From: Endomychus coccineus
Lineage: Eukaryota; Arthropoda; Insecta; Coleoptera; Endomychidae
NCBI GenBank assembly: GCA_958510875.1
Contig: OY294067.1
Span: 194,997,322 to 195,061,321, forward strand
DNA length: 64,000 bases
Direction: 5' to 3'
Within the stretch, counting starts at the first letter, position 1, and every line of letters starts with the position of its first letter. Positions 24,186 to 58,714 of the stretch are shown one piece after another. The notes under the pieces were generated by a model that saw nothing but the letters and a program-made list of their open reading frames with translations, did no database searches and was not told the DNA's origin. Both the position numbers and the translations under genes were made by a program.

Positions 24186-24284
24186 CTCACACGATGCTCT
24201 ACCAACATTATCTATAGATTTTCCTCGTATACCAAAATAGTAAACAGTATCTAATTGTTGTTCACCTAATTTAGTATCATTTAC
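24186..24284 (-). pseudogene. Displaced 3' fragment of Polinton B PLA2-like gene
   Basis: On the minus strand this continues, in frame, the PLA2-like gene interrupted at 37503 (right side of the inserted Polinton): after the conserved AKAVN the reading runs into DTKLGEQQLD and onward. The 6 bp ATTTAC at 24279-24284 is the target duplication. Left of about 24186 the sequence is non-LTR retrotransposon. Confidence 0.7.
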
Positions 24285-24691
24285 AGTAGGTGTAATGGGC
24301 TAGTTCTGGGGCGGAAGTGCATCCGGTCTCGAGTATAGGGAATTGCGTGAGTGTGAGAGAGAGGTGTATATGTTTGATGCGATTCTGTGTTCTGAGGGTA
24401 ATGGACCATAGAGTTGGATGTTGTGTATAGAATAGAATAGAAGTGTGTTGTAGACCATAGAGTTGGATGTTGTGTGTTGTGTTCAAGACCACAGTAGATG
24501 AACTGGGCTAGTTCTGCCTCAGGATATCCGGTCTCCACTTCCGGTCTAGCTGTCGATGTGCATCCGGTGCATGAGCTCGTCCTTATCAGTTTTGAAAGGA
24601 TGTAGGTGATAAGGATTTTATTTGTAAAGAGTATACAGGGTGTGTTTAAAAAGTGTGTCACATGTACAGAGTCACGTGACTAACACATGAC

Positions 24692-25130
24692 AGCATGGCG
24701 ACCATAAGGACCAGCTGTCATGGCGATCATAAGGACCAGCTGTCATGGCGACCATAAGGACCAGCTGTCATGGCGGGCATAAGAACCAGCTGTCATGGCG
24801 TCCATAAGGACCAGCTGTCATGGCGGGCATAAGAACCAGCTGTCATGGCGATCATAAGGACCAGCTGTCATGGCGTCCATAAGGACCAGCTGTCATGGCG
24901 GCCATAAGAACCAGCTGTCATGGCGACCATAAGGTCCAGCTGTCATGGCGATCATAAGGACCAGCTGTCATGGCGTCCATAAGAACCAGCTGTCATGGCG
25001 GCCATAAGAACCAGCTGTCATGGCGACCATAAGGTCCAACTGTCATGGCTGACCTAAGGTAAAGCTGTCATGGCGACCATAAGGACCAGCTGTCATGGCG
25101 ACCATAAGGTCCAGCTGTCATGGCGGCCAT
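24692..25130 (+). repeat. 25-bp tandem array in the TIR
   Basis: About 17 imperfect copies of a 25-bp unit with the invariant core CAGCTGTCATGGC and a variable ACCATAAGG-type spacer. Mirrored at about 36720-37100 in the right TIR. The unit carries a CAGCTG E-box. Confidence 0.85.
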
Positions 25131-25540
25131 CAAGTGACAGCTGTCATGGCGGACCTAAGGTACAGATTGCTTCGTGAAGATGTCACCACCACGTGACAGC
25201 TGTCATGGCGACCCTTGGGTACAGGCTGCTTCATGGAGATGTCGCCACCACATGACAGCTGTCATGGCGGACCAAAGGTACAGGTTGCTCCGTGTAGATG
25301 TCACCACCACGTGACAGCTGTCATGGTGAGCTAAAGGTACAGGCTGCTTCATGGAGATGTCGCCACCACATGACAGCTGTCATGGCGAACCGAAGGTACA
25401 GGTTGCTTCGTGTAGGTGTCACCACCACGTGACAGCTGTCATGGTGAGCTAAAGGTACAGGCTGCTTCGTGTAGGTGTCACGTGACAGATGTCATGGCGG
25501 ACCGAAGGTACAGGCTGCTTCGTGGAGGTGTCGCCACCAA
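25131..25540 (+). repeat. 59-bp tandem array in the TIR
   Basis: About six to seven copies of a unit of about 59 bp combining GACAGCTGTCATGGC with AAGGTACAG...TGCTTCGTG and GTCACCACCACGT. It grew from the same CAGCTGTCATGGC core as the 25-bp array. Mirrored at about 36400-36720. Confidence 0.8.
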
Positions 25541-25924
25541 TTCGACTCGTCCGACTCATGCGACTCGTACGGTTTTGAAATCACATGATCTGTCACGCGG
25601 TGAGATATGGTGTCTGTCACTTCGACGGAGAGTGTCTGTCACAAGGTGTCATGGTGGCTATCACGTACCATAGAGCTGAAGGTTACAGAGCTAACCCAAC
25701 TCAAAACCATAGAGCATCATGGTGGTGGAAAGAGTTGTCATGATGTCTGTCACGTGAGGTCTTCATCGAGGTGTCATGTCGCGTCTTGGAGGGTGTGACG
25801 TGGTGGATCCATGAAGCATCTGTCACGCGAACTGTCAAGACGGATCTATGAATGTCAACTATAGCTTTATAGGTATCAAATGAAAAGTCTTGATATGCAG
25901 AATGTTAATTTTATTGAATTGAAG

Positions 25925-26180
25925 ATCCTACGATCATAGTTTATCAACGGTGATGACGTCACGGGAGGCATTCATTGTTTCAATCCGGCGACCATAGTTT
26001 ACGAACGATGATGACGTCACTGCTTCAAGCCAATGACAGTAACTGATTCAACCCGGCGACCATAGTTTACGAACGATGATGACGTCACTGCTTCAAGCCA
26101 ATGACAGTAACTGATTCAACCCGGCGACCATAGTTTACGAACGATGATGACGTCATCATCGTTCACGAACTATGATGGGC
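25925..26180 (+). repeat. 68-bp array with TGACGTCA palindromes
   Basis: Three to four units of about 68 bp, each with ACCATAGTTTACGAACGATG followed by a full TGACGTCA (CRE-like) palindrome and GCTTCAAGCCAATGACAG. The innermost copy (26127-26173) is an imperfect palindrome of about 46 bp centred on TGACGTCA. Mirrored at about 35708-36010. Its position at the inner edge of both TIRs suits a promoter for the outermost genes. Confidence 0.8.
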
Positions 26181-26234
26181 TAATGAGGAATAAAATGTGA
26201 ATAATCATAATGATTGTAATACATTCATGCACAT

Positions 26235-26405
26235 GTTTTTCGCATGATTCAACACGTGTTTCAACATTCAGACACGTGTTTCAGACACGTGCTTCAACAT
26301 TCAGACACGTGTTTCAGCATTCAGACACGTGTTCCAGCATCCAGACACGTGTTTCAGCATTCAGACACGTGTTTCAGCATTCAGACACGTGTTTCAGCAT
26401 TCATA
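26235..26405 (+). promoter_or_regulatory. 20-bp array of CACGTG E-boxes upstream of the ATPase gene
   Basis: About eight copies of a unit around TTCAGACACGTGTTTCAGCA, each carrying the palindrome CACGTG. The array lies just inside the left TIR and ends about 120 bp before the ATPase start; no copy is present at the right end. It may be an enhancer-like array or merely a minisatellite. Confidence 0.6.
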
Positions 26406-26524
26406 CCTATTTAACATGTATTTGATACCTGATTTTGACAGAAGCGTAGAAGCACCTAACCGCGTGATCAGACATACACAATATAACATCATCATCTAGT
26501 ATATAAACAAATGCTTATTAACAT

Positions 26525-27250
26525 ATGTTCCAGTATGATTTCGATTCGCCTTCAGGCATGATGAAGATTGTTAAGCAAAAAGACTCGTTGAGTATTATGA
26601 ACTTAGGGTCAAGCAATGAGAATGTTGAACAACCACAACTTCACAGCTCTTTGCTGCCTAATACTCTACGAACAATAATCTGTGGTCCAAGTAATTGTGG
26701 GAAAACAAATGTGATGTTATCTCTATTGTTAGATGCAAACGGTCTGAAATTTGAAAACGTGTACATATATTCAAAGTCTTTACATCAACCAAAATACCAG
26801 TTACTAAAGGAGACATTGAAGAAAATTGAGGGGCTTGGATATTTTCCTTATACCGAAAGTGATGAGGTCATAGACCCCACAGAAGCGAGGCCTAATTCGA
26901 TAATAATATTCGATGACGTGATGTTTGAGAAACAGGAGAAAATTCGTGCTTATTTTTCAAGAGGGAGACACAACTCAATTGATAGTTTCTATCTTTGTCA
27001 GTCTTTTGCTAAATGTCCAAAACATGGATTGCGCGACAATGCCAATTGCTTGATTATTTTCAAACAGGATGAGCTCAATTTGAAACATATATTCACCGAT
27101 CTTGTAAGTACCGACATGTCACTCGAAAAATTCAAAGAGATATGTAGCGTATGTTGGAAAGATAAATATGGATTCCTTATGATAAACAAAGACTGTGATA
27201 TGAACAAAGGACGTTATCGCAAAGGTTTTGATAGTTATATATACATCTAA
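26525..27250 (+). CDS. Polinton packaging ATPase (FtsK/HerA, A32-like)
   Basis: 241 residues. Walker A GPSNCGKT at residues 54-61 and Walker B IIIFDD at about 126-131; the conserved AYFSRGRHNSIDSFYLCQ and DNANCLIIFKQ segments are shared with the split copy at 38983-48793. This is the genome-packaging ATPase family of Polintons and many large DNA viruses, thought to drive DNA into capsids. The ATG at 26525 gives a short N-terminal extension before the conserved part; a second ATG follows at residue 12. It is the first gene inside the left TIR and is followed after 42 bp by the DUF8207-like gene on the same strand. Frame intact. Confidence 0.9.
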   Translation: MFQYDFDSPSGMMKIVKQKDSLSIMNLGSSNENVEQPQLHSSLLPNTLRTIICGPSNCGKTNVMLSLLLDANGLKFENVYIYSKSLHQPKYQLLKETLKKIEGLGYFPYTESDEVIDPTEARPNSIIIFDDVMFEKQEKIRAYFSRGRHNSIDSFYLCQSFAKCPKHGLRDNANCLIIFKQDELNLKHIFTDLVSTDMSLEKFKEICSVCWKDKYGFLMINKDCDMNKGRYRKGFDSYIYI

Positions 27251-27292
27251 CATGTATATATACTTTCATTTGAAATAGACAACCCGCTCAGC

Positions 27293-28357
27293 ATGGACGT
27301 GGGTGTGAGTAACATGCTAAAGGAAAAACAACAATTGAAGAAAAAAATTTGGGAGTTAGCAAACGTTGTGAGGAAAAAATATATGGCTGTGAAATTGGGT
27401 AAAGCTGAAAATGATGAGATTTTAGATAATATGTTCAGGAATGTATCTAAACCTCTGGAGGAAATTGCGAGAAATGCTGAAATAATCAAACAAAATTCGT
27501 TGGTTAAACCTAAAAGTATTGTTTCTACAGCAACACAAATGGAGAACATACCAATCCCAAATATTGTAACTGAAGGGGAAGAGTTCGTATATAACCCTCA
27601 AAATACTGAGGAGGATGTGTTTACCCTCGAACCTAGTATCGATCAGATTCGTGAAGAATTCAGAAAACATAAGAAAGATAATGCAGAGGCTACAGAGGAG
27701 TTTCTGCAACAATACCCCACATTAGCACGTTGTTACTTGGAAGGATTCCTATTGGATGATGATGTCAAGAAATACGATGATAGAATGGGATTGCAATATA
27801 ATTCAACTTTAGACAAATGGTTCATGGGTAATCAACCTATAGAAATTGATAGTGAGAGTAGTATAATTATCAAGGGTACTCCATTCAAGGGTACCACAGG
27901 ACTGTATAATTTGATATTTTACAGAGATGTTCTACCTGATACTTACACTGTGGAAGATGGGAAAAATTACAGTCAAATGATGGAAATGACTAGTGCCCAT
28001 AGACGTAATAACGATCCAGCTGATCGAATAAGAAACATTGTAAAATACAAAAATGTACTGAAACCTTTGATTAATTCCATGAAAAAACCCAGAGCCAAAA
28101 CATACACTGGAAGTGCATATATCAAAAATGATATGCTTGAATATAACGAGAAACCTATCGAATATGTTTATTGGGATGACGTTAACGAAATTGTGGATAG
28201 ACTGAGACTTCTTGTTGCATCCTCGCATGCAGGTAACCATAATCATCACAACGAGATAATCTCTATAATAGAAGAATTGATAGAGGCAGGGGTAATTGAA
28301 CAAAAACCAGGTGTAAGACAAATTCATCACAGTTATAAAGATGGTTTCAATGGATAA
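27293..28357 (+). CDS. DUF8207-like Polinton protein
   Basis: 354 residues. Lys-rich N-terminus (MLKEKQQLKKKIWELANVVR), an acidic middle, and a conserved C-terminal half: GLQYNSTLDKWFMG, FKGTTGLYNLIFY, NEKPIEYVYWDDVNEIVDRLRLLVASSHAGN. Copies at 49018-50142 and 57109-57987 share the same blocks. As far as I recall, this domain (DUF8207) is found in insect Maverick-type elements; no biochemical role is known to me. It overlaps the start of the fibre-like gene by 17 bp, which suggests tight genetic packing. Frame intact. Confidence 0.8.
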   Translation: MDVGVSNMLKEKQQLKKKIWELANVVRKKYMAVKLGKAENDEILDNMFRNVSKPLEEIARNAEIIKQNSLVKPKSIVSTATQMENIPIPNIVTEGEEFVYNPQNTEEDVFTLEPSIDQIREEFRKHKKDNAEATEEFLQQYPTLARCYLEGFLLDDDVKKYDDRMGLQYNSTLDKWFMGNQPIEIDSESSIIIKGTPFKGTTGLYNLIFYRDVLPDTYTVEDGKNYSQMMEMTSAHRRNNDPADRIRNIVKYKNVLKPLINSMKKPRAKTYTGSAYIKNDMLEYNEKPIEYVYWDDVNEIVDRLRLLVASSHAGNHNHHNEIISIIEELIEAGVIEQKPGVRQIHHSYKDGFNG

Positions 28358-28994
28358 GTTTGGCAGAGCCTCCTCTTCCATGTGGATATATGATACAAAT
28401 GTATTTAATAATAATTTCAAACAAGTTCACGGACAAGGATTATTCCTAACGAGCGATGGAAGTTATGATATGGAAAATCGTAGATTGTGCAACGTGAAAT
28501 CACCGAATGATGATGGAGATGTTGCAAATAAAGTATATGTTGATAAATTAACACACAAACTGAATCTGAAAACGGAAACCAGTCTTAAAGATACCTTCAA
28601 TGTTAGGGTTGATAATTTGATCAAAGATATCAACAAGGATCTGGATGAACATAAATTAACGAATGAGAAGGTTATTCTCAACATTGATAAACATATGATG
28701 AACCTTCAGAATAAATATAATGGAATGGGGATCTATATAAAATCAGAGTATAAAACAATCAGTGATAGTGTGAGGGAAAACAGAAATGAATTGAAAGAGA
28801 TCAATAACACATTTAACAGTGTGAACATGCGTCTAAATGACATTACTAGTAAAGTGGAGGCGTTAGAACGACGGATGACATCTGTGGAACCTTCTTAGAA
28901 GAGACCCTCATCATCCACAATAACAAAGCAGGGCTCTGTGAAACGTATATCTCCAAATCCTGTGAATATACCCAAAAAATTAATTCTACACTAG
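28341..28994 (+). pseudogene. Fibre-like coiled-coil protein, one premature stop
   Basis: The frame opens with DKFGRASSS, has a NRRLCNVKSPNDDGDVANKVYVDK segment of the sort seen in phage tail-fibre proteins, then long heptad-like helices to the end. A TAG at 28896-28898 ends it at 185 residues, but the frame resumes at once with KRPSSST and VKRISPNP and stops at 28992-28994. The copy at 56451-57119 has the matching KKRPNDATT and PKRMTPNP tail, so the stop is a nonsense mutation. It probably makes a virion surface fibre; that is inference. Confidence 0.7.
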
Positions 28995-29011
28995 ATTTCC
29001 ACATTGATAAG

Positions 29012-29935
29012 ATGAGTAGAGAACAAGTTGTGCATGAGCTTCATAAGCCGAGTAGGAAGAATTTCAAACGACGCAGAACAATCATAAAAGGTTTAGATGA
29101 TTTGTGGCAAATGGATCTGGCTGAAATGTGTAATTACGCTCGTGAAAATAGAGGATTCAAATATATTTTGATTATGATCGATTGTTTCTCGAAATTTCTA
29201 TGGACACGCCCGCTGAAAACGAAATCAGCCGAAGAGGTTCGGAAAGCGGTCAGTTCTATATTGTTAGAAGGACATCGTAAGCCTAGGAATCTGCAAAGCG
29301 ATCAGGGAAAAGAATTCTTCAATAAACACTTCAACGATCTAATGAAGAAACATAATATCAATCATTATAATACGTATAGTGTGAAAAAAGCAGCCATTGC
29401 TGAACGTGTCATTCGAACATTAAAGGAATCGCTCTACAAACATTTCAGTCTTAGCGGGAAATACAAATGGCTTGATATACTTGAAGAAACTACAGAAAAA
29501 TATAATAAACGTAAACATAGTACTATAAATATAGCTCCAATAAAAGTGAAGAAACAGATTGAGAGCGGGATATTGAAGCGATCCTACTCACACATCAAGT
29601 TAGCTCTGCCTCACAAATACAACGTTGGAGATGTGGTACGAATAAGTAAGGCTAAACATATTTTTGAGAAGGGATTTACGCCCAATTGGAGTACGGAATT
29701 ATTTAAAATCATCAAAGTAAAAATTACCAACCCGGTCACATATCTACTAGAAGATATGACCAACGCACCAATCAGCGGCTGTTTCTACGAGGAAGAATTA
29801 CAGAAAACAAAACAACCCGATGTGTATTTAGTCGAAAAAATATTACGAAAGAGGAGGGGTCAACAGTATGTGAAATGGTTGGGTCTAGATAATAATCACA
29901 ACAGTTGGATCAATAATTCGGATCTCGTTCAATGA
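29012..29935 (+). CDS. Polinton integrase (retroviral-like, with chromodomain)
   Basis: 307 residues. Catalytic triad in WQMDLAEM, NLQSDQGKEFFN and AIAERVIRTLKE; a C-terminal SH3-like part (YNVGDVVRISKAKH) and a chromodomain-like end (PDVYLVEKILRKRRGQQYVK then WLGLDNNHNSW). This is the c-integrase typical of Polintons and catalyses insertion of the element with 6-bp target duplications, in agreement with ATTTAC found around this element. Starts at ATG 29012, 18 bp after the fibre frame's final stop. Frame intact. The chromodomain may direct target choice. Confidence 0.9.
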   Translation: MSREQVVHELHKPSRKNFKRRRTIIKGLDDLWQMDLAEMCNYARENRGFKYILIMIDCFSKFLWTRPLKTKSAEEVRKAVSSILLEGHRKPRNLQSDQGKEFFNKHFNDLMKKHNINHYNTYSVKKAAIAERVIRTLKESLYKHFSLSGKYKWLDILEETTEKYNKRKHSTINIAPIKVKKQIESGILKRSYSHIKLALPHKYNVGDVVRISKAKHIFEKGFTPNWSTELFKIIKVKITNPVTYLLEDMTNAPISGCFYEEELQKTKQPDVYLVEKILRKRRGQQYVKWLGLDNNHNSWINNSDLVQ

Positions 29936-30217
29936 ATCCATCATTAACCATTTGGAGATTATTAGGAACAAACAAATAGCTGGAATATTATTGACTCGAG
30001 GGTATGGTTATTATTATAATAGAACAAAATTCCGTGAATATGAGGGTGAATCAAGAGTGAAGATTATAATATTTGAAACATATATTGTTAAGATTATACT
30101 TAAGTCTTTTGTATTGAGAAAATTTTGAAATTAATAAAAAATATTATTTTGAAATCTTTGGTCTTTCTCCCTCCCCTCGTTAAATAACGGTGCAATCTTG
30201 AATTCTCATCAGTCTGT
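29936..30217. other. Intergenic spacer, integrase to PLA2-like gene
   Basis: About 280 bp, AT-rich, with AATAAA-like sequence near 30130. No frame of note. It may hold the 3' end of the early transcription unit and the promoter of the capsid gene block. Confidence 0.4.
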
Positions 30218-31000
30218 ATGGAAGCGTACGTAGGAGAAGGTGTTCTCAATACGCTTATAAACAAGCTCCCGTTTGAACTTCATATTCCTGGTTATCAATT
30301 CTGTGGTCCCGGTACAAAATTAGAAGAACGGTTGAGAATAGGTGATTCAGGTATCAATCCACTCGATAAAGCTTGCCGCCAATACGATATTTCATATCTG
30401 CGAAACGCTAGTTTGGAAGGACGTCACGAGGCGGATAAAATATTAGAGAACGCTGCTTGGCAACGTGTCAAATCTAAAGACACAAAATTTGGAGAACGGA
30501 TTGCCGCTTTCGGTGTGAATAAAATTATGAAGGTAAAGAGGAAATTGGGGATGGGTATGAGAAAGAAGGTTGGGTTCGGAAGTGCAATTGTCGATGGGGT
30601 GAGAAAAGTTATGAAGAATAAGTTTGACTCATCCAATCTGAAGAAACGATCCCAAACAGCGTTGAAAGTTGCACGAAAACAATTCAAAAAAGCAGGTGGT
30701 CGGAAAAATGTTCGGTTACCAAGAGTAATTCCTATTCCAAAGACTGGAGGATTTCTACCATTTTTAATACCTCTGTTTGCCGGCTTATCAGCTGCTGGAG
30801 CATTGGCGGGAGGTGGTGCAGGCATCGCTAAGGCCGTCAACGACAGCAAAGCAGCTCGGAAAACCTTGGAGGAAACGGAAAGACATAATAAAACAATGGA
30901 AGCTATAGCTTTGGGAAAACAAGGATCTGGTCTATATTTGAAAAAGTATCGCAAAGGTCTTGGTCTATATTTAAATAAACATCCAAAAAACTGTCAGTAA
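30218..31000 (+). CDS. PLA2-like domain / membrane-hairpin minor virion protein
   Basis: 260 residues. The N-terminal ~60 residues follow the parvovirus-type phospholipase A2 domain: a Ca-binding-loop-like PGYQFCGPG at about 24-32 and the active-site-like CRQYDISY at 53-60. The catalytic His of the usual HD pair is Tyr here, while the related copy at 38865-38329 keeps CKQHDIAY. A basic middle follows, then a Gly/Ala-rich hydrophobic segment (GGFLPFLIPLFAGLSAAGAL) and a repeated GLYLKK/GLYLNK tail. In related viruses such proteins help breach membranes during entry; without the His, this copy may lack lipase activity. It overlaps the start of the protease frame. Confidence 0.75.
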   Translation: MEAYVGEGVLNTLINKLPFELHIPGYQFCGPGTKLEERLRIGDSGINPLDKACRQYDISYLRNASLEGRHEADKILENAAWQRVKSKDTKFGERIAAFGVNKIMKVKRKLGMGMRKKVGFGSAIVDGVRKVMKNKFDSSNLKKRSQTALKVARKQFKKAGGRKNVRLPRVIPIPKTGGFLPFLIPLFAGLSAAGALAGGGAGIAKAVNDSKAARKTLEETERHNKTMEAIALGKQGSGLYLKKYRKGLGLYLNKHPKNCQ

Positions 31001-31371
31001 ACCTACCCAGAAGACCTCTGACCGATCTCGATCTACGAAAACTAGCAAAAGCTCTGAAAATTCCCCATTTTAGAGGAGTATTTATGCGTGATGAACTGCC
31101 ATCCAACGGACCATGGAAAAACGAGCGTGGAATAGTTAATTTAGATAGCTCGGACAATGGAGGCACTCACTGGGTTGGGTTTAATAAAGTCGGTGATACA
31201 GTTTTATATTATGATAGTTTTGGCAATTTACGCCCCCCTCGCGAACTAGTGGATTATTTCAAAAAGTGTAAGATATTATTCAATCACGATAATTTTCAAC
31301 AATATAACACTTATAATTGTGGTCAGTTATGTTTAGATTTCCTCTCTAACTCTTCAGTTGTGCTCGACTAA
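30979..31371 (+). CDS. Adenain-type (C5/Ulp1-like) cysteine protease
   Basis: Catalytic motifs are visible: GGTHWVGF (His), YYDSFGN (Asp) and NCGQLCLDF (Cys), in the order of adenovirus maturation proteases. The first ATG in frame is at 31084, but the open frame extends upstream to 30979, overlapping the PLA2-like gene, and encodes the family-typical LTDLDLRKLAKALKIPHFRG before MRDELP. No ATG lies in that extension, so the true start is uncertain (a spliced transcript, a non-ATG start, or a lost start). Its likely role is cleavage of virion precursor proteins. The same overlap is seen in the third Polinton near 58340. Confidence 0.8.
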   Translation, partial: TSKKLSVNLPRRPLTDLDLRKLAKALKIPHFRGVFMRDELPSNGPWKNERGIVNLDSSDNGGTHWVGFNKVGDTVLYYDSFGNLRPPRELVDYFKKCKILFNHDNFQQYNTYNCGQLCLDFLSNSSVVLD

Positions 31372-31422
31372 CCCTGCATTTATTAGTATATAAACAGATT
31401 GTTGGTAAAGTTTTCATCAATC

Positions 31423-32154
31423 ATGTCTCAGACGTTCACTATCACGGGTAAGAGCTCCCGCTTATCTGTAGATTTCCACCCACCTATAGAACTAGATCCT
31501 CATTCATATTATTCTATCGCACTTGTTGGCTTGCATACGTACAATAGCATTCCGAACATTGAAGAAGGTTTTAATAAATTTTATTATAAAATGTGAAGGG
31601 TGAGGAAGAAGTAGTAACTATACCTACGGGGTCCTACGAGTTGACAGACATCGAGGATTTCATACAAAGTGCAGTTTGTGGGATAGGAGTGAAGCAAGAA
31701 GAACGTGACCGGAAATTATCAATAAAATCTAACAACAACAGAGCTGAAGAGTGATTTTGAAGTGAATTTTATTCCTAAAGATAGTATAAGCGAACTGTTG
31801 GGATTCAGCAAAAAGAAATTGACATCTCGTGAACTACACGTATCTGATCGACCTATAAACATAATCAAAGTTCAAACAATACGAGTAGAGTGTAACTTAA
31901 CCGCAGGAGCATATTATAACAATAAGATAGCTCATACGATATATGAGTTCTCACCTCTTGTACCACCTGGGTGTTCCATTAATATAGAGCCGAAGAATCT
32001 TATTTATCTACCGGTCATCAGCAAGACGTCCTTCGATAACATCACACTGAATATTTTAGATCAGAATTGGAAACGGGTAAATTTTCGTGGAGAAGAAATT
32101 ATTATACGGTTGGAGTTGAAAAAGACCGCTAGGGATTATGGCTTCCAACAATAA
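31423..32154 (+). pseudogene. Penton-like minor capsid protein, two frameshifts
   Basis: Starts MSQTFTITGK at 31423. The frame is lost near 31595, continues in another frame (VTIPTGSYELTDIEDFI) to about 31745, and then shifts again into 31762-32154 (LLGFSKKK, YNNKIAHTIYEFSPLVPPG, IYLPVI). The matching gene at 59206-59830 shows the same blocks. In Polintons this position and size fit the single-jelly-roll penton protein; the assignment rests on order and similarity between copies. Two frameshifts make it unlikely to be functional. Confidence 0.65.
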
Positions 32155-32376
32155 ATAATAATCCAATACTCACCACCACTCATTATATGAAAAGAATTCA
32201 TCTGAGAAGGTTGTTGTTGCAGTAGCCATCACTTGAGAACATGGGTTTGGATTTCAGCAATAAAAGACATACCCATAGTGGTCATCAGTCATTATCTACA
32301 ACAAGTTCAAGGGAGAAGGTTGCTTCTGCATCACTATCATTGGAAAATATCAATTTTTTGAAGTCCCTTGGTTACA

Positions 32377-33579
32377 ATGTCGGAAAAACTTCAAATATTC
32401 AACGAGCCAAACTTCAATGAAGACATCATCCGAGAAGAAACTCATACCTACTATCCCCACACAACATCTTTTGGCAACAGCGATGAAATTGAGATATTAA
32501 TCAATCAACAAGATGTGTTGGTAGATTTGGCCTCGTCTGCTTTATTCATCGAGGCAGAATTCCAGCCAGAAGCAAGTGGTGATGGTGAATGTAAACTAAC
32601 GAATAATTTCGGAGCGTTTCTCTTCGAATATATCAGTTATGAATTGAATGGAAAAGAGATAGACAAAGTACGTGATCCTGGTATTGTCAGCACCATCAGA
32701 GCTTATCTAACATATGCCAAACATGAATCTATACCTCTAGCTATTTCTGGATGATCATTTAAGGATGTATTGAGTTCAGTCTACAATAATAAAATCAATT
32801 TATGGATACCGTTGAATTTTCTACTAGGCATATTCATTGACTATAACAAAGTTTTGAGTGGAAAACATAAGCTGCGCTTGATAAGGTCTCGAACCGATAA
32901 CGATTGCTATACTAATAGCACAGGCACGAAAACGGCTAAAATAAATGTGAAGACGATAGCATTAAAAGTGCGACATGTGTTTCCAAGTGATCAAGTTAAA
33001 TTTCAAATGTTGGGGAATTTGAGTGCTGAGAAGCCTATTTTGATTCCATTCCGTAGTTGGGATCTGCATGAAAATCCGTTGATGAAGGAGAGCACTCGTT
33101 ACATTTGGGCTGTTAAAACATCAATGAATTTGGAACGTCCTAGATATGTGATTCTAGCTTTCCAAACTGATCGAAAAAATAATCCTGTTAAGCACAGTGC
33201 ATATTTCGATAATATAAACTTGCTAAATGTAAAATTATACTTGAATTCAGAGTGTTATCCATATGAAGCAATGAAATTGAATTTCACCGACCAGCAATAC
33301 GTGGAAGCATACCAGATGTACTATGATTTCCAGAAATCATTTTCAAATAAAATAATAAGCGAACCCAAGTTAGATTATATAGCATTCAAGAATAGAGCAA
33401 TTTTTGTGATTGACTGTTCAAAACAAAACGATGCTATAAAGTCATCAACAGTTGACGTCAAACTAGAGATGGAAAGTTTCCTGAATTTCCCCAAAAACAC
33501 CAGGGCTTATTGCATCATCATTAACGATCGTATAATGGAGTATTCTCCGATTACAGGATCAGTTCGGAATTTGGTGTGA
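32377..33579 (+). pseudogene. Major capsid-like protein (double jelly-roll), one in-frame stop
   Basis: About 400 codons from ATG 32377. A TGA at 32752-32754 interrupts the frame, which otherwise continues uninterrupted to 33579 (WIPLNFLLGIF, VFPSDQVKFQMLGN, YVEAYQMYYDFQKSF). The N-terminal half has a conserved AEFQPEA...FLFEYISYELNGKEIDKVRDP region. Size, place between penton and end genes, and the absence of another candidate suggest the Polinton major capsid protein; I recognise the family by its general pattern only. The stop may be a simple nonsense mutation, or TGA read through; the other decayed genes favour mutation. Confidence 0.6.
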
Positions 33580-33716
33580 AGAACCAGGTGATGAATCATA
33601 ATGTTATAATTTTAGTTCTAAATGATGTACTATCAAAATGTATCTTTCCCAATAAATGTTATTATTATTATTATATTTGATATTTTATTTCTCAAACGGT
33701 AGGTGGTGATGTAAAC

Positions 33717-33750
33717 ATCCGACGATCATAGTTTGTAAACTATGGTAGTC
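33717..33750. promoter_or_regulatory. Internal palindrome related to the TIR motif
   Basis: A near-perfect 34-bp inverted repeat whose centre reads CATAGTTTGTAAACTATG. The half-site CATAGTTTA recurs in the 68-bp arrays of both TIRs. It lies between the capsid gene and the MSV199-like gene, upstream of the latter. Confidence 0.5.
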
Positions 33751-33915
33751 GGTTGCTGGAAATGAAACAAATTGAAACAACTAGTGACGTTATCAGTCAG
33801 TTATCAACGTTTGCAATGACATCGAAACGGAGAGTTACCCCCCACCCTCACTATTCACGTTCACGTTCTCACGTATGTAAGAGAGAATCATTTCAGAAAA
33901 TGTTCAGTTATAAAA

Positions 33916-34815
33916 ATGAACTTAGCAGCGTGCGTTCGTGATTCAAATGTGTCTACATGGTCCACCAACAATCTTATTAAGTTAACAGTTAATGAAGTGT
34001 GTCTAAAATTTGGGATCGATATAAGAAACGATAAAAGAAACTATTTATTTTGGAATATTCAACTAAACCAACGCGTTCTGATGAATGAAGATCTATTGGA
34101 TTGGTTAGGTTATCGCGGCAAAAAATATCATGCTAAAAAGGGTGTTATAACAAGATTGTTGAGGAAAAACCCGCATATACACCATTTAGAAATTTGTGAT
34201 AAGACTGATGCACGAAAGAAATATTATGTTCTAGATGCTATTGATTTCGAATCATTATTGATGCAAATGCGAACTCCTAAAGTCATCGAGTTACGTGAAC
34301 TGTTTTCGTTAATGAAATTTATTATGATGAAATATTGTGAGTACGAGAAATTCTATGAACAACAAGAACGTCAAAGAGCTGAGGAACGTGAATGTCTTGC
34401 GAAAGAACGATCTCAACGCTTATCTCAACAAATTCAAATGAATGTTATCACCTTACGGAATAACATTGCACCAAATATTGTTCCACCTCCTATAAATTTC
34501 GGAAAGAGACGAAATTTAGGTAATTACTTTTGTTTTTTATAATAAAATTTATATAATATATATTATTTAGGATTATATCGAACATCGAATGATATGAGAC
34601 CAGAATGGTACCTGATGCGTCGACAGGAGGATGGTTGGCGTGATGCCGACAGAAAATTACAAAATCGAGGAATGCGATTAATACGTAAATGGTCTAACAT
34701 ATCTCATGCTATCGATATTGGTAACGAAGTGAAACAGAATTTCCGCCGCGATTTGAAATGGTATGCAAGAGGAGATATTATTCATGCAGCAGAAGAAGAG
34801 GGGGTGAACAATTGA
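33916..34815 (+). CDS. MSV199-like domain protein with a 51-nt intron
   Basis: join(33916..34519, 34571..34815), 282 residues. The first exon alone would run into a stop after a few intron codons; splicing the GT-AG intron 34520-34570 keeps the frame (NLG-LYRTSND). The N-terminal half, with LMNEDLLDWLGYRGKKYHA and a basic helix-rich stretch, resembles the MSV199 domain of entomopoxvirus and other insect-virus proteins (family recall, not tested). The C-terminal part (RPEWYLMRRQEDGWRDADRK) may correspond to the DUF3627-like tail that often follows it. The middle holds a long charged coiled coil. Role unknown, possibly DNA-binding. The frame upstream (33753-33941) is taken as chance. Confidence 0.65.
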
Positions 34816-34958
34816 TTAGTGACATCAACATCGAGTCATTGATAGAATGTGTTATCAATCACAAAAATAAAGCTTATGAACTAGCAAATGATAATGTCAA
34901 TATATTATTATAATTATCATTCCTTTTGTTTTATTAAAACACTTATATCTTCATACAA

Positions 34959-35480
34959 TCATTTATTTACATGGTAAATAGCCTTCTTTACATATTTAAC
35001 AAACATTTTCAACATTAGTACTGATAAAGAAGATAAAATTGCATACAAAATTGCGAAAATTTTAGAAATTTCTTCGTCTAGTGAGGATGATGTACGTGTG
35101 GATGGTGTTGATATTGTCTTTTGTATGACATGTGGTAAACATGATGATTGTTGGAGCAATTGCCATTCAGCCATATCTCCCTCACTCCGATCAAAGAATA
35201 AAAGTTTAAGTTTATAATGTATGGTGGTACGATTATCTTGAGGAATGTTGAATGCGAATACCTCTAATTGATTATCGTTGATTTTTCTAAAATTCATCGG
35301 AATCCATTCGGTACGGTTACACCCCCCACCACCATCGGTTGCAACATCCTTCAGACAAATATAAATGCGCTCAACGTGTTGGGGAACGTTCGCGTATAGA
35401 ATACCATTCAGAATTGTGGTAAGAATCACGAAATTTGTTTTTAACATCCCCACTCCCATCATTATCTTCACTTTTTGCAC
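34959..35480 (-). CDS. Predicted single-pass membrane glycoprotein
   Basis: 173 residues, minus strand, the only gene in Polinton A on that strand, ending the gene block before the right TIR. A hydrophobic N-terminus (NFVILTTILNGILYA) suits a signal peptide. The ectodomain has two N-glycosylation sequons (both NRT) and several Cys, and a C-terminal membrane segment (IFAILYAILSSLSVLMLKMF) is followed by a basic tail. I do not recognise the family. It could be a virion surface protein, but that is inference from topology only. Convergent with the MSV199-like gene. Confidence 0.5.
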   Translation of the reverse strand: MQKVKIMMGVGMLKTNFVILTTILNGILYANVPQHVERIYICLKDVATDGGGGCNRTEWIPMNFRKINDNQLEVFAFNIPQDNRTTIHYKLKLLFFDRSEGDMAEWQLLQQSSCLPHVIQKTISTPSTRTSSSLDEEISKIFAILYAILSSLSVLMLKMFVKYVKKAIYHVNK

Positions 35481-35675
35481 TTGTAAATGTATTCAACAGT
35501 CTTATAACTTTTATTTTATCTTCGTAAAAATTCAAGTCTCTTCTTAGTTCATGAACTTTCTCCACAAATTTTCAAAGTATACGTGTGTATTCTTCAAAAG
35601 ATATATGCATAATGACACATTTACAAACTTACTGGATATCTTTATCATAACCTCCAACTATTCACATTTACACAT

Positions 35676-37502
35676 AGAGTATCATTATTATTACTCACAT
35701 TTATTCCTCATCTGACCATCATAGTTCGTGAACGATGATGACGTCATCATCGTTCGTAAACTATGGTCGCCGGGTTGAATCAGTTACTGTCATTGGCTTG
35801 AAGCAGTGACGTCATCATCGTTCGTAAACTATGGTCGCCGGGTTGAATCAGTTACTGTCATTGGCTTGAAGCAGTGACGTCATCATCGTTCGTAAACTAT
35901 GGTCGCCGGGTTGAATCAGTTACTGTCATTGGCTTGAAGCAGTGACGTCATCATCGTTCGTAAACTATGGTCGCCGGATTGAAACAATGAATGCCTCCCG
36001 TGACGTCATCACCGTTGATAAACTATGATCGTAGGATCTTCAATTCAATAAAATTAACATTCTGCATATCAAGACTTTTCATTTGATACCTATAAAGCTA
36101 TGGTTGACATTCATAGATCCGTCTTGACAGTTCGCGTGACAGATGCTTCATGGATCCACCACGTCACACCCTCCAAGACGCGACATGACACCTCGATGAA
36201 GACCTCACGTGACAGACATCATGACAACTCTTTCCACCACCATGATGCTCTATGGTACGTGATAGCCACCATGACACCTTGTGACAGACACTCTCCGTCG
36301 AAGTGACAGACACCATATCTCACCGCGTGACAGATCATGTGATTTCAAAACCGTACGAGTCGCATGAGTCGGACGAGTCGAATCGGTGGCGACACCTCCA
36401 CGAAGCAGCCTGTACCTTCGGTCCGCCATGACATCTGTCACGTGACACCTACACGAAGCAGCCTGTACCTTTAGCTCACCATGACAGCTGTCACGTGGTG
36501 GTGACACCTACACGAAGCAACCTGTACCTTCGGTTCGCCATGACAGCTGTCATGTGGTGGCGACATCTCCATGAAGCAGCCTGTACCTTTAGCTCACCAT
36601 GACAGCTGTCACGTGGTGGTGACACCTACACGGAGCAACCTGTACCTGTGGTCCGCCATGACAGCTGTCATGTGGTGGCGACATCTCCATGAAGCAGCCT
36701 GTACCCAAGGGTCGCCATGACAGCTGGACCTTATGGTCGCCATGACAGCTGGTCCTTATGGTCGCCATGACAGCTTTACCTTAGGTCAGCCATGACAGTT
36801 GGACCTTATGGTCGCCATGACAGCTGGTTCTTATGGCCGCCATGACAGCTGGTTCTTATGGACGCCATGACAGCTGGTCCTTATGATCGCCATGACAGCT
36901 GGACCTTATGGTTGCCATGACAGCTGGTCCTTATGGCCGCCATGACAGCTGGTCCTTATGGACGCCATGACAGCTGGTCCTTATGATCGCCATGACAGCT
37001 GGTTCTTATGCCCGCCATGACAGCTGGTCCTTATGGTCGCCATGACAGCTGGTCCTTATGATCGCCATGACAGCTGGTCCTTATGGTCGCCATGCTGTCA
37101 TGTGTTAGTCACGTGACTCTGTACATGTGACACACTTTTTAAACACACCCTGTATACTCTTTACAAATAAAATCCTTATCACCTACTTCCTTTCAAAACT
37201 GATAAGGACGAGCTCATGCACCGGATGCACATCGACAGCTAGACCGGAAGTGGAGACCGGATATCCTGAGGCAGAACTAGCCCAGTTCATCTACTGTGGT
37301 CTTGAACACAACACACAACATCCAACTCTATGGTCTACAACACACTTCTATTCTATTCTATACACAACATCCAACTCTATGGTCCATTACCCTCAGAACA
37401 CAGAATCGCATCAAACATATACACCTCTCTCTCACACTCACGCAATTCCCTATACTCAGACCGGATGCACTTCCGCCCCAGAACTAGCCCATTACACCTA
37501 CT
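35676..37502 (-). repeat. Right terminal inverted repeat of Polinton A
   Basis: Reverse complement of 24285-26213, with the 68-bp, 59-bp and 25-bp arrays in mirror order and slightly different copy numbers. Frames inside (36100-36507, 37127-37704) are repeat counterparts of those on the left and are not genes. Ends ...CACCTACT at 37502, followed by the target duplication ATTTAC. Confidence 0.9.
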
Positions 37503-38865
37503 ATTTACTGCCTTCGCTATTCCAGCAGCACCTCCACCTAGTGCACCGAGTGCACTTAGTGCTGCAAATATTGGTATAAGTGGTAATATGCCACCAGTTT
37601 TACGTACTTGTATTACACGTGCAGGTCTTATTCGTTTTTTAAGTTTTTCAACTGATTTCATTGCAGCCAGAATAGCATCATTGAAATTTTTAGGCTTACG
37701 TTGAACAACCTTTTTCTTAATTTGTCATATTTCATTCTTCAAACTTATTAACTTTTTCTTTTTTCAACAATTTTTTTCATTTGCATTTTTGAACGTTTTT
37801 TAGATTTTTTTGATTTGTGTTCATTTGATACCATTTTTTCTTTTCGTAACCAATTTGCATGTTAACTGTTTGAAAATCGTTTTTGTACTGAACATTTCAA
37901 CACTCATTAATATGTTTTTATTTTTTCCACCGATCCATCACCGGCATCATCATCCAACTTACGTTTATTAATATTTGATTCAAGTTTCAGCTTCTTAGTA
38001 GTAGTGATATCAGCTTCATCGTCTTCATTAAAACGTATTTTCCTTTTTCTCGCGATGAGTTTAGGACGTTTAGTAATCCTCATTTTTCTAATAGGAATTG
38101 TACTATCACCATCTTCTTCTAATTTCCTTTTTAGTGGTGATGGTTTAATAATACTCATTATAGGAGTGTTTAATGTAATATCTTTCGTTTTCACATCATC
38201 CACTTTCTGTTTTCTAACTTTATTACATATTTTTCTTTTTTTAAAAGCAATTGTACTATCATCTTCTTCTAATTTTCTTATTAGTGATGGTTGTATTATA
38301 GGGGTAATATCTTTCGTTTTCACATCATTCAATTTCCTAACTTTATTTTTATAGTATATTTCCTAGAATTTGTTTTAGTTTTTATTGATGTTTTGTACTG
38401 TCTTATATTATTTAAGCTGATTTCAATATTTCTTAAAGAATTTTCTACAAACTTTTTAGTCTTCTCCATGGACTTGAAGCAATTATTAACAATTTGATTG
38501 CAATTATTGTTGTATCCCATACCAAGTTTTACTTTAGCCTTCATCGTACCAGCTATCCCCAATGCAGCCATTTTTTCACCTAACGATGCATTGTTAGAAT
38601 GAAATCTAGCAAGAGCTTTATCAGCTAGCATTTTGTCAGCTTCATGACGACGTTTAATATCCTTTTCCTGAGAATATGCTATGTCATGTTGTTTACACGC
38701 TTCATCCAATTCATTCACCTCCTTATCGCCTCGAGCTAATCTTTTTTCAAGTTTTGTACCCGGACCGCAATATCTATATCCTGGTATATGCATTTCAAAC
38801 GGTAAATTATTTATAACGCTATTCATAATACCCTCCCCCTCTACAATATTCGGATAAAATCTCAT
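37503..38865 (-). pseudogene. Polinton B PLA2-like gene, split by Polinton A
   Basis: Minus strand from ATG 38865. PLA2-like N-terminus with PGYRYCGPG and an intact CKQHDIAY active-site motif; then a frameshift near 38330 into a Lys-rich stretch (38332-37907), and the hydrophobic Gly/Ala segment (PLIPIFAALSALGALGGG) near 37600-37540. At 37503 it is cut by insertion of Polinton A within the conserved AKAVN; its continuation is at 24284-24186. Related to 30218-31000. Its 5' end faces the ATPase gene of the same element, 117 bp away. Confidence 0.75.
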
Positions 38866-38982: not shown

Positions 38983-39100
38983 ATGAAAGTGATAAAACAG
39001 CGAACAACTTCAAGTGTAAATAATCACGATTTAGTTCAAGATAAGGATAATAAGAATCATGACTCACTTTTACCTTCCACGATAAGATGTATAATTGTGG
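38983..39100 (+). pseudogene. Polinton B packaging ATPase, 5' segment
   Basis: Starts MKVIKQRTTSS and ends at the codon just before the P-loop, where the Gypsy element 39101-46403 is inserted. Across that element (counting one copy of the duplicated GTGG) the reading frame goes directly on to PSNCGKT at 46408. Homologous to the N-terminus of 26525-27250. The short divergent region 38866-38982 should carry promoters for this gene and for the PLA2-like gene. Confidence 0.8.
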
Positions 39101-40523
39101 TGTAATGAAGCATTCTTCATTACTTACAAATAAATTTGAATATCTCAGTAGAATCGAATTACATAGGCAAAGTTAAGAGATCAAACTTCGTGCACATCTA
39201 TGTATAAAAACTGGTGAACAGAATTCGCCAGCCGGTCACCTGTTCACGTTACGTCACACGCCGCGATCTGTATAAAAGCAAGCCCATTTCATAGCGAAAG
39301 GGGACTGACTTGCCAGACCAGCACCGAGATTGACCTGCCGTAATCTAAACAACCCGAAGCCGTTGCTATTGTGCAAATCCGAGAAATAGAGAGTGAGTAT
39401 TAATTGCCGTTTAAAATCCATTCAAGTCATTGAATTAACATTCCAGGATATAAGTCTGATTTCAAATTCGAACTTTGTTTATAAATTCAATAGTCTACAA
39501 AACAATCCTGATAGCTTGGACGAATACGATTCAGCTTCTGCGAATTGTTTTTCTAGAGACTAAGTTAGGATTTTGTCCGAGACCGATTTGTAGAATTGTG
39601 AATAAACACACAGCCGAAACCGCTGGGAAAAACAATCCTTATAGCTTGGACGAATACGATCCAGCTTCTGCGAATTGTTTTTCTAGAGAATTAACATTCC
39701 AGTATATAAGTCCGATTTCAAATTCGAACTTTGTTTATAAATTCAATAGTCTACAAAACAATCCTGATAGCTTGGACGAATACGATCCAGCTTCTGCGAA
39801 TTGTTTTTCTAGAGACTAAGTTAGGATATTGTCCGAGACCGATTTGTAGAATTGTTAATAAAGTCACAGCCGAAACCGCTGGAAAAATCAAGCCTTATAG
39901 CTTGGACGAATACGATCCAGCTTCTGCGAATTGATTTCAGGGGCTACGTGGTGATTCTCTCCGAGACCGACTTGTGAAATTATTAAGTCAGTCATAGCCG
40001 ATAGCTGACAAATCAACCTAGTCCGTTATACCCCGTTCCGTAAGAAATTACGTCTGAAATACAGGTCAGAGCGAATACACGACCCACGCTCCGTCGAAGT
40101 TAACAGTGTACTAAATATTTAGATTGTCGCGATTCATTTCATTTCTAGACCTAGGGACAAAAACTTGTCTACCATCTCACGCAGATGGTGGAGACTCCCG
40201 ACGATAGGAAAACATCTAATTAGCGCGTTATTTTATACACGGAAAACGAACACATTAAAACGGCCTGTTCCTAGCAACATTTTGTAAATAGATTGTACAT
40301 AGCTGGTGTAAATGTAAATAGAGATAATTAATAAACTTAGTTAAGCAAGAAATATCTGTTTTATTTGGCAATCCACACGAAAGAGAAACAGCAATTTTAA
40401 AACCTATATAAAAAGGGAACCTGGACCCTCAAGAAACCCGAGCAGGTCAGTTACTGTCATAAGAGGACAGTAAGTGACAACCTCCCCACTTGTAATTAAC
40501 CATTCAAGCGGAAGGAGGTTACA
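39101..40523 (+). repeat. 5' LTR of the Gypsy element
   Basis: TGTAATG...GTTACA, with TGTAA/TTACA inverted ends. A TATAAAA box near 39270 is followed by the likely transcription start. The middle holds four tandem copies, spaced about 129-136 bp, of a segment with AGCTTGGACGAATACGAT and GCTTCTGCGAATTG. Frames at 39475-39934 are these repeats and not genes. Confidence 0.9.
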
Positions 40524-40526
40524 AAA

Positions 40527-40540
40527 TGGCGCCCGAGATT
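40527..40540 (+). other. Primer-binding site of the Gypsy element
   Basis: TGGCGCCCGAGATT, three bases inside the LTR end. The TGG start is complementary to a tRNA CCA end; I cannot name the tRNA. Confidence 0.7.
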
Positions 40541-40590
40541 TAAAGTAACGGAAACTAGATAGAAATTGCTCTCTTTGATTGCCAAATAAA

Positions 40591-44489: not shown

Positions 44490-44520
44490 CTAATGTAATT
44501 TTCTTTCCCCAGGGGTAAAT

Positions 44521-44964
44521 ATGACTTCAGTTCCGGAAATTAGAACTCCCGGGAAAGACGCCGAGGCTGCCATCCGACTGGGAAAGAGGCTGCACGATCT
44601 ATTTGGTTCCAGTCCGGAATCAAGTCCAGAACTCCAGCTGTACTATTCGCCGATCCCCAATATGACACCGCCTACTCCCGATCTACCCCAGCAGCAACCG
44701 TCCTTACCAAAGAAACTATCAACCCCTTGTGTAAATAACCCCCTGAAATATAGTGACAGAGACACCGTTAGTGGTATAAATAGATTAAGTGTAGATAGTA
44801 AGAAACCATATTTTAAGAAACGTTTACGTAAAATGCATGACTATAGGGTGTATGATCCAATCGGCCGGCTTGTGGCGCGCGTGAAAATACCGTGGAACTG
44901 TGAGGTCAAGCCGACGTACGAAACGTATCGTACGTTCGAAAATTTTCAGGAGAAAATTTTCTAA
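44521..44964 (+). CDS. Third ORF of the Gypsy element, unknown product
   Basis: 147 residues, hydrophilic, Pro-rich middle (MTPPTPDLPQQQPSLPKK) and a basic C-terminal half. No signal peptide or membrane segment, so it does not look like an envelope protein. Just before it is a pyrimidine-rich stretch and AG (TTTTCTTTCCCCAG, ending 44512), a good splice acceptor, placing it where env would be expressed from a spliced RNA. Not recognised. It ends 16 bp before the LTR. Confidence 0.55.
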   Translation: MTSVPEIRTPGKDAEAAIRLGKRLHDLFGSSPESSPELQLYYSPIPNMTPPTPDLPQQQPSLPKKLSTPCVNNPLKYSDRDTVSGINRLSVDSKKPYFKKRLRKMHDYRVYDPIGRLVARVKIPWNCEVKPTYETYRTFENFQEKIF

Positions 44965-53039: not shown

Positions 53040-54845
53040 TCTCATCCCCCGTAAAATTCCGATTCATAGATTCATATAGATTTTTGAATACATCACTAGA
53101 TCAGCTAGTTTCCTTCTTGAATGTTAACCAATTGAAAATTTTAAAGCGTGAATTCAATCATTTATCAGAAGATCAGTTCAATTTATTAACCCGTAAGGGG
53201 GTTTTCCCTTATGAACATTTAGATGGGTGGAATCGATTGGATGAGTTAAATTTACCATCAATCGAAAAATTCGATAATAAATTGAGAGATGAATCTATAA
53301 GTGCGGAGAACTATAAACATGCACAAAACATTTGGCAGAAATTTAATTGTAGTAATTTAGGGGAGTATTCAGATATATATTTTAAAACGGACGTTTTGTT
53401 ATTAGCTGATGTTTTTGAGAATTTTAGAGCTAAATGTATTGAGATAGGCAGTTTAGATCCATCGTACAGCTTCACTTTACCTGGATTCTCGTGGGAGTGT
53501 ATGTTAAAATATACTAAAATTTCTCTCCAAATTCTCAAAGACATCGATATGATTATGTTTATAGAAAGGGGGATAAGAGGAGGTGTGAGCCAATGTTGTA
53601 ATAGATTCACAGCAGCTAATTATAAATATATGAAGGATTATAATCCACAAGAGGAGAATAGTTACCTCATGTACTCCGATGTATGTAATTTATATGGGTG
53701 GGCTATGGCCCAATATTTACCGTATGGAAATTTTGAATGGTGACAAATATTTCCGATGAAAGTCCTATTGGATACATTCTAGAAGTAGATCTAGATTACA
53801 TGATGTTCGCAAAGATTTACCGCTTTGTCCTTTACACTCAACACCCCCTAATGCTAAAGAACCTAAATTATTATCCACTCTATTTAATAAATCTAAATAT
53901 ATTAATCACTATAGAAATGTGAAACAATGTTTAGCATTAGGAATGGTCTTGAAGAAAGTGCATAGGGTTTTGAAATTTAGTCAATCCGCTTGGTTGAAAG
54001 TGTATATCGATTTGAATACGCGACTACGCGCAGGTGCGCAGAATAAATTTGAGGAGGCTCTTTTCAGACTAATCATAAATGCAATATTTGGGAAATCGAT
54101 GGAGAACGTACGTAAGCATCGGAGCGTTAAGGTAGTTAATAAATGGTATGGACTATTTGGAGCGCGATACTATATTTCGCAGCCGAATTTCAATAGTAGT
54201 AAGATTTTTGATGGAAATTTGATAGCAATCAAGCAAAACAAACTCGAAATATAATTAATAAACCAATTTATATAGGAATGGCTATTTTAGATATTTCAAA
54301 AACTTGTGTGTTTGATTTCCATTATAACTTTATGCTGAAAATATATAAAGATCCTGAAGCGATAAGGCTGTGTTATACAGATACTGATAGGTTGATCTAT
54401 CATATAATCACTGACGATGACATCTACGAGACGATAATCAGGAAAAATGTTTCAAAATCTGATACAAGCGACTATGCTGTGGATAATATTTTTAATGTCC
54501 CACTTGTGAATAAGAAAGTAGTAGGACTTATGAAGGATGAGAACAAAGGATTTTTAATGACGAAATTTGTAGGCTTACGCTCCAAAATGTATAGCTATAA
54601 AGTAGAAGGAAAAGAACCTGTTAAAAAAGCGAAGGGTATTAGAGATGCTGTATTGAAATATTCCATCTCTTTTGAAGACTTGTTAAATGTCTCGGGGAGG
54701 AAATTGAGATTTATAGAGTGCAGAAATCAATCCGCTCTTTTGATTTCAATCTTTACACCATCGAACAGAACAAAATTGCTTTGAGTCCGTTTGATACCAA
54801 ACGTCACCTGATAAAATACCGAACAAATACCCTGCCTTATGGGCA
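53040..54845 (+). pseudogene. Polinton DNA polymerase B, multiply frameshifted
   Basis: Protein-primed family B polymerase pieces: FRFIDSYRFLNTSLDQLVSF, YSDIYFKTDVLLLADVFENF, TLPGFSWECMLKY, GIRGGVSQC and YSDVCNLYGWAM (motif A region, DxxxLY) up to 53743; after a shift near 53800, the stretch LALGMVLKKVHRVLKFSQSA and IINAIFGKSMENVRKH; after another near 54250, CYTDTD (motif C, followed by Arg where Ser is usual) and KFVGLRSKMYSYK, ending near 54845. The N-terminal exonuclease half is missing or unrecognisable. It probably belongs with the third Polinton. It would replicate the element; it cannot be functional here. Confidence 0.8.
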
Positions 54846-54850
54846 CTATT

Positions 54851-58699: not shown

Positions 58700-58714
58700 C
58701 AACCACACACCACC

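What the first reader, a model, noticed from the sequence alone, without database searches (positions are those of the whole stretch)
24279..37508. Complete Polinton with perfect 6-bp target duplication but no PolB gene
Both ends (AG...CT), 1.8-1.9 kb TIRs and the ATTTAC duplication can be placed to the base. The interior holds integrase, ATPase, protease, capsid-like and PLA2-like genes, yet no family B polymerase or trace of one. Autonomous Polintons are expected to encode a protein-primed PolB. This looks like a virion-forming Polinton type that is replicated by another element's polymerase or by the host, or a deletion derivative that still moved.
Basis: partly seen in the sequence, partly recalled or inferred. 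Interest (0 to 1): 0.9.

Follow-up and report, generated by a model that had tools for sequence, protein, structure and literature searches.

The report
Polinton family borrowing another's ends
An insect genome holds a virus-like mobile element that has no DNA polymerase of its own, occurs at many independent sites, and carries the same ends and nearly the same integrase as a second element that does have one, which suggests that the first relies on the second to be copied.

Summary
Element A (24285-37502) has AG..CT ends, 1.8-1.9 kb TIRs, a perfect ATTTAC duplication and no trace of PolB. It is not a one-off deletion. The nine other A-type elements whose interiors were read (eight full copies, one palindromic) lack PolB, and each has its own perfect 6-bp duplication. 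Integrase, capsid, protease and PLA2-like genes are under purifying selection. A differs from D in gene order and content; 8 of 9 shared genes have synonymous divergence of 2 or more, integrase 0.66. Yet terminal positions 28-260 are as alike between A and D (97.1%) as within A (97.1%). So A-type looks like a capsid-coding, polymerase-less Polinton satellite that wears the ends and integrase of a PolB-bearing Polinton and is probably replicated by that PolB in trans (inferred). A and one other copy also carry a second TIR type outside the first; it also ends elements 18.6-18.9 kb long, whose genes I could not read. Polymerase-less relatives are reported in protists; the search listings I saw show no such helper pair in animals.

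The parts
24279..24284 (.). left copy of 6-bp target duplication ATTTAC
37503..37508 (.). right copy of target duplication ATTTAC
24285..26194 (+). left TIR (25-, 59-, 68-bp tandem repeats)
35700..37502 (-). right TIR
24285..24492 (+). outer TIR unit (TIR2, AGTAGGTG..); elsewhere the end of pairs 18.6-18.9 kb and 12.9-14.2 kb apart
37296..37502 (-). outer TIR unit (TIR2), right side
24493..24752 (+). start of inner TIR (TIR1, AGTAGATG..), the end shared by 24 A-type and 5 PolB-bearing D-type elements
24501..24519 (+). 19-bp hypervariable block of TIR1 (positions 9-27); 27 distinct versions in 29 elements, same on both sides of one element in 11 of 11
37269..37287 (-). the same block in the right TIR, identical
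26525..27250 (+). packaging ATPase gene (A32/FtsK type), 241 aa
27293..28357 (+). ORF2, 354 aa, unknown; present in D and in both relic elements
28341..28898 (+). ORF3, 185 aa, weak tail-fibre-like N-terminus and coiled coil; pN/pS 1.25 among copies
29012..29935 (+). rve integrase with weak chromodomain-like C-terminus; the long nucleotide match to D (29016-29934) coincides with this ORF
30218..31000 (+). PLA2-like gene, 260 aa
30979..31371 (+). adenain-like cysteine protease frame
31726..32154 (+). minor capsid candidate, 142 aa here, longer in other copies; assigned by position and homology to D
32362..33579 (+). double jelly-roll major capsid gene with a private in-frame stop at 32752-32754
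33820..34542 (+). MSV199-domain gene, first exon; 62% aa to a protein of Microctonus hyperodae filamentous virus
34573..34812 (+). probable second exon of the MSV199 gene after a short intron
34959..35492 (-). ORFm, 177 aa, no family found
37377..38865 (-). older Polinton ('B'): its PLA2-like gene, which A interrupts
53048..54784 (+). PolB of a separate relic element ('E'), N-terminal part missing; not part of A

Best explanation
A belongs to a multicopy family of capsid-coding Polintons that have lost PolB and live as satellites of a PolB-bearing Polinton family (D-type) in the same insect genome. Shown: no PolB, many independent insertions with perfect 6-bp duplications, purifying selection on integrase and capsid genes, and a TIR pool and integrase shared with D although the other genes are old and diverged. 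Inferred: when both are active in one nucleus, the D PolB with its built-in terminal protein initiates on the shared TIR ends and copies A as linear DNA; A makes its own capsid, ATPase, protease and integrase; its integrase inserts the copy. A has since gained a second set of ends (TIR2), which fits end-swapping between helpers.
For: (1) Recurrence: 10 A-type elements with both ends read (A, 8 full copies, 1 palindromic) have 10 perfect 6-bp duplications, all different. (2) None of the 9 others shows PolB in its interior by tblastn or profile; 14 further elements typed from 6 kb each are A-type, and tblastn found no PolB in those stretches. (3) D-type elements keep an open PolB: 1158 aa in D with motifs DVCNLYG and YTDTDS; open in three others as far as read, broken in one. 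(4) TIR positions 28-260: A-A 97.1% (276 pairs), A-D 97.1% (120 pairs), D-D 97.3% (10 pairs); one D and one A share the same hypervariable block. (5) A versus D: synonymous divergence is 2 or more, or saturated, in 8 of 9 genes; integrase has dS 0.66, and its long blastn match covers 29016-29934, the ORF itself (compared over 28301-30600, where the only other match is 80 bp at 74% in ORF3). (6) pN/pS among copies: integrase 0.15, capsid 0.15 and 0.27, protease 0.25, PLA2-like 0.27; pooled over all genes 0.34. (7) One copy is a palindrome of two left halves (arms 5001 bp, 99.86%) with its own duplication GATGAC, as expected if linear genomes with equivalent ends replicate and integrate. (8) The two ends of one element carry the same hypervariable block in 11 of 11 elements.
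Against: No experiment or expression data. The first TIR search used A's own TIR and scored 40 of 1938 candidates, so copy numbers are lower bounds and biased to A-like ends. Shared ends could come from gene conversion between integrated copies rather than shared replication. Other PolB copies are abundant here (150 scored of 1686 candidates), so D need not be the helper. MSV199 (pN/pS 0.94), ORFm (0.64) and ORF3 (1.25) show little constraint. Whether TIR2 elements carry PolB was not seen, and 4 of the 15 TIR2 pairs are 8-34 kb apart and fit neither size class.
Confidence: 0.68

Rival explanations
1. A-type elements move by their own integrase and are copied only by host chromosome replication and repair; no helper polymerase is involved.
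For: A encodes a constrained integrase. Copy gain could follow from excision with repair.
Against: Retained capsid, protease and ATPase genes under constraint, the palindromic copy and the TIR pool shared with PolB elements are not expected.
Confidence: 0.12
2. The helper is a large nuclear insect DNA virus (filamentous-virus type), as giant viruses help virophages.
For: A's MSV199 protein is 62% identical over 169 aa to one from Microctonus hyperodae filamentous virus, so the two kinds have probably exchanged a gene.
Against: The shared TIRs and integrase point to a Polinton. One shared gene shows exchange, not dependence.
Confidence: 0.07
3. A-type encodes its own unrecognised replication protein (ORF2, ORF3 or the MSV199 protein).
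For: ORF2 is unassigned; it has a weak, below-cut-off match to YabA, a replication-control protein (15.3 bits, cut-off 30), and its model is too poor to judge (mean pLDDT 45).
Against: ORF2 and ORF3 also occur in PolB-bearing D, so they are no substitute. MSV199 is a small domain family, and pN/pS is 0.94.
Confidence: 0.07
4. A is a recent internal-deletion derivative of a PolB-bearing parent, one that still moved.
For: One A-type copy with an internal deletion exists (L062), so deletions do occur.
Against: The 9 other elements whose interiors were read lack PolB. D has an inverted gene block and, integrase apart, genes with synonymous divergence of 2 or more. No closer PolB-bearing parent was seen, though genome searches with A's own genes did not complete.
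Confidence: 0.04

Closest known systems
Polinton/Maverick elements (adintovirus-type in animals)
   Same: 6-bp duplication, AG..CT ends, long TIRs, rve integrase, A32-type ATPase, adenain-like protease, DJR capsid, PLA2-like gene (the list of what is typical is partly recalled)
   Different: no PolB, 13.2 kb against the 15-20 kb given in PMC4028283 (passage), an MSV199 gene not found in the interior of D
Polinton-like viruses without pPolB, and polymerase-less protist elements
   Same: capsid genes without pPolB; PMC10120064 (passage) says many of its protist elements lack a detectable polymerase
   Different: PMC11071308 (passage) says PLVs mostly lack both pPolB and the rve integrase and have other replication proteins; A has the rve integrase and no replicase found
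Virophages (Maveriviricetes)
   Same: capsid-coding small dsDNA elements that depend on another virus (recalled)
   Different: the likely helper here is a Polinton, not a giant virus; A has no recognised replication gene
Non-autonomous DNA transposons (MITE-like; recalled)
   Same: mobilised through ends shared with a complete element
   Different: A keeps its own capsid set and integrase under purifying selection

Membership tests
Polinton (autonomous) | 6-bp target duplication | tested here: met
Polinton (autonomous) | long TIRs with AG..CT ends | tested here: met
Polinton (autonomous) | rve-family integrase | tested here: met
Polinton (autonomous) | protein-primed PolB | tested here: not met
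Polinton (autonomous) | A32/FtsK-type ATPase | tested here: met
Polinton (autonomous) | adenain-like cysteine protease | tested here: inconclusive
   Pfam below cut-off; homologous to the D frame in the same place
Polinton (autonomous) | DJR major capsid protein | tested here: met
   A's own copy is broken
Polinton (autonomous) | penton-type minor capsid protein | tested here: inconclusive
   no Pfam match; position and homology to D only
Polinton-like virus (PLV) | other replication protein in place of pPolB | tested here: not met
   no Pfam match above cut-off to a polymerase, primase or primase-helicase in ten A frames and the mCP frame; only weak, below-cut-off hits. The second MSV199 exon was not scanned.
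Polinton satellite with a PolB-bearing helper (proposed) | ends shared with a PolB-bearing element | tested here: met
Polinton satellite with a PolB-bearing helper (proposed) | replication shown to need the helper | not testable with these tools
   needs live insects or cells

The most novel reading that the evidence does not exclude
In an animal genome, one Polinton family parasitises others: it keeps its own capsid but wears the helper's ends and integrase, is copied by the helper's PolB, and switches helper by adding new ends outside the old ones (TIR2 outside TIR1). Each genome also carries a 19-bp near-terminal block that varies from element to element and is matched at the two ends.
Probability: 0.45. 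Interest if true: 0.87.

Novelty: new variant of a known kind. Interest (0 to 1): 0.75.

Why it matters
Polintons are usually taken to be self-replicating because they carry PolB (recalled). A young family with constrained capsid and integrase genes, no polymerase, and the ends of a PolB-bearing neighbour makes trans-replication between Polintons testable in an animal. It would place helper-satellite relations inside the Polintons, a group that some authors put at the root of virophages and adenoviruses (recalled). The palindromic insertion and the matched terminal block also give indirect marks of a linear replicating form.

Tried and rejected
Related contigs in IMG/VR by capsid protein and by a capsid alignment: 31 stretches matched patterns each time, none a relative. 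Phage collection: only matches at E>=0.5. ORF2 structure: mean pLDDT 45, not used. Three of 11 left/right TIR comparisons (C3, C5, D) ran past the TIR and were dropped; for these I use the terminal 260 bp (99.2-100%). Five ends (one left, four right) were first placed wrongly by my script and corrected. In one search, 13 matches were left out (gaps, under 88% identity, or under 40% of the gene; recounted). The second end of the second complete D copy was not found in L067, so its duplication is unknown. In six full copies about 1 kb of each TIR was not read. Simple deletion from D was rejected (gene order, synonymous divergence). Whether TIR2 elements carry PolB or an A-type core was not settled. 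No genome search with integrase, MSV199, the integrase-PLA2 junction or D PolB was ever answered.
Full report
WHAT IS THERE. Element A runs from 24285 to 37502. Its ends are AGTAGGTG and CACCTACT, and both sides are flanked by ATTTAC. The TIRs are about 1.9 and 1.8 kb, made largely of 25-, 59- and 68-bp tandem repeats, and differ by 7 substitutions in 1628 aligned bases. Gene order is ATPase, ORF2, ORF3, integrase, PLA2-like, protease, mCP candidate, major capsid, MSV199-domain gene (all plus), then ORFm (minus). A profile from 120 PolB proteins hits PolB in the window only at 53048-54251, in another element; inside A the best hit has E=1.1. This copy is not intact: the capsid gene has a private in-frame stop that the eight other full copies do not share.

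WHERE IT SITS. A interrupts the PLA2-like gene of an older Polinton on the minus strand. The right flank matches A PLA2 residues 143-208 at 56%; the left flank gave no significant match. I infer that the same old element continues to the right, its ATPase gene split around repeats and a polyprotein frame spaced like an LTR retrotransposon (39100-45817); the first ATPase piece rests on a weak match (40%, E=0.007). The window's PolB belongs to a further relic to the right, with an integrase 81% identical to A's.

THE FAMILY. Searching the window's own genome (906 Mb, 129 contigs, unnamed) with A's TIR gave 60 matches from 40 scored of 1938 candidates. Besides A, the interiors of eight full copies and one palindromic copy were read (in six full copies about 1 kb of each TIR was not). 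None shows PolB, and the full copies keep A's gene set and order; nearly all protein matches are 90% identical or more, a few pieces lower, down to 77%. The other 14 A-type elements were judged from 6 kb each. Duplications: A ATTTAC; C3 CAGGTT, C5 ATCGAA; TCCTTT, AACTCG, ACCTCT; GCCATG, GTCATA, GTTATA, and GATGAC for the palindromic copy. D has TATATA within a TA repeat, which is weak evidence. pN/pS over pairs of 7 to 11 sequences: integrase 0.15, capsid 0.15 and 0.27 (two parts), protease 0.25, PLA2-like 0.27, ORF2 0.37, ATPase 0.41, mCP 0.41, ORFm 0.64, MSV199 0.94, ORF3 1.25; pooled 0.34. Pairs are not independent, the two halves of the palindromic copy count as two sequences, and 13 matches were left out.

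THE POLB-BEARING PARTNER. D (C1:201460176-201479409, 19.2 kb) has the order ORFm, PolB (plus), then minus-strand x51, integrase, ORF3, ORF2 and ATPase, then plus-strand PLA2-like, protease, y58, mCP and capsid. Its PolB frame is 1158 aa with palm motifs DVCNLYG and YTDTDS (motif meaning recalled). Pfam's own PolB family did not pass E=0.01 for it, but the 120-sequence profile gives 839 bits. A has the ATPase-integrase block inverted relative to the PLA2-capsid block, lacks PolB, x51 and y58, and has MSV199, which was not found in D's interior. A versus D: 8 of 9 genes have dS of 2 or more or saturated; integrase has dS 0.66 and 84% identity, and its long nucleotide match covers 29016-29934, that is, the ORF (over 28301-30600 the only other match is 80 bp at 74% in ORF3). 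In contrast, TIR positions 28-260 are 97.1% alike between A and D and 97.1% within A; label shuffles give no separation (859 of 2000 reach the observed difference). In the hypervariable block A-D pairs (65.4%) are even slightly more alike than A-A pairs (61.0%). D-type ends fall in two places in the TIR tree. So ends have been exchanged far more recently than the genes diverged.

SECOND ENDS. A and the C5 copy carry about 200 bp of another end type (TIR2) outside TIR1. A search with A's outer 204 bp scored 40 of 141 candidates; by my own pairing the 40 full-length rows make 15 pairs and 10 unpaired rows: six pairs 18.6-18.9 kb apart, three 12.9-14.2 kb, A and C5, and four others of 8, 26, 26 and 34 kb.

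MECHANISM. Shown: a recurrent, recently inserted, polymerase-less, capsid-coding family under purifying selection that shares ends and integrase with a PolB-bearing family. Inferred: trans-replication by the partner's PolB from the shared ends, packaging by A's own capsid set, insertion by A's integrase. The palindromic copy (arms 5001 bp at 99.86%, own duplication) fits a linear replicon with equivalent ends; an assembly fault is possible. The matched hypervariable block (27 versions in 29 elements, equal at both ends in 11 of 11) fits copying of one end from the other.

LITERATURE. PMC4028283 (passages seen): Polintons are 15-20 kb with pPolB, RVE integrase, ATPase and protease; nine elements without capsid genes also lack protease and ATPase, the mirror image of A. 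PMC10120064 (passages seen): many protist elements lack a detectable polymerase. PMC11071308 (passages seen): PLVs mostly lack pPolB and the rve integrase. PMC10403939 (passages seen) describes Microctonus hyperodae filamentous virus, with five KilA-N genes and 17 BRO genes; A's MSV199 protein is 62% identical to one of its proteins over 169 aa. PMC6431247: passages seen, general. In the listings of searches (25 of 71, 15 of 597, 15 of 377, 11 of 11, 12 of 49 and 10 of 35 papers shown) I saw no title or abstract on an animal Polinton satellite; they cover open-licence PubMed Central papers only.

LIMITS. Counts are lower bounds.

Noticed in passing
G000:C1:200634691-200648594 (L023, L024, L031, L032): Palindromic A-type insertion, two left halves head to head (arms 99.86% over 5001 bp), with its own 6-bp duplication.
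   Followed up: partly
24501-24519 and 37269-37287; 29 elements: 19-bp block near the TIR1 end is hypervariable and looks combinatorial between elements, while the next tens of bases hardly vary; it is equal at both ends of an element. Cause unknown.
   Followed up: partly
33820-34812: MSV199 gene of A resembles one of an insect filamentous virus and probably has a short intron.
   Followed up: partly
39100-45817: Repeats and a polyprotein frame spaced like an LTR retrotransposon lie within what looks like the ATPase gene of the older Polinton.
   Followed up: no
G000:C1:124616700-124622700 (L062): A-type copy with an internal deletion from integrase to MSV199.
   Followed up: no
28341-28898: ORF3 has a weak fibre-like N-terminus and pN/pS 1.25 among copies, perhaps a diversifying attachment protein.
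   Followed up: no
53048-60000 and L045: Relic PolB element 'E' right of A, with integrase 81% and an ORFm piece about 84% identical to A's.
   Followed up: partly
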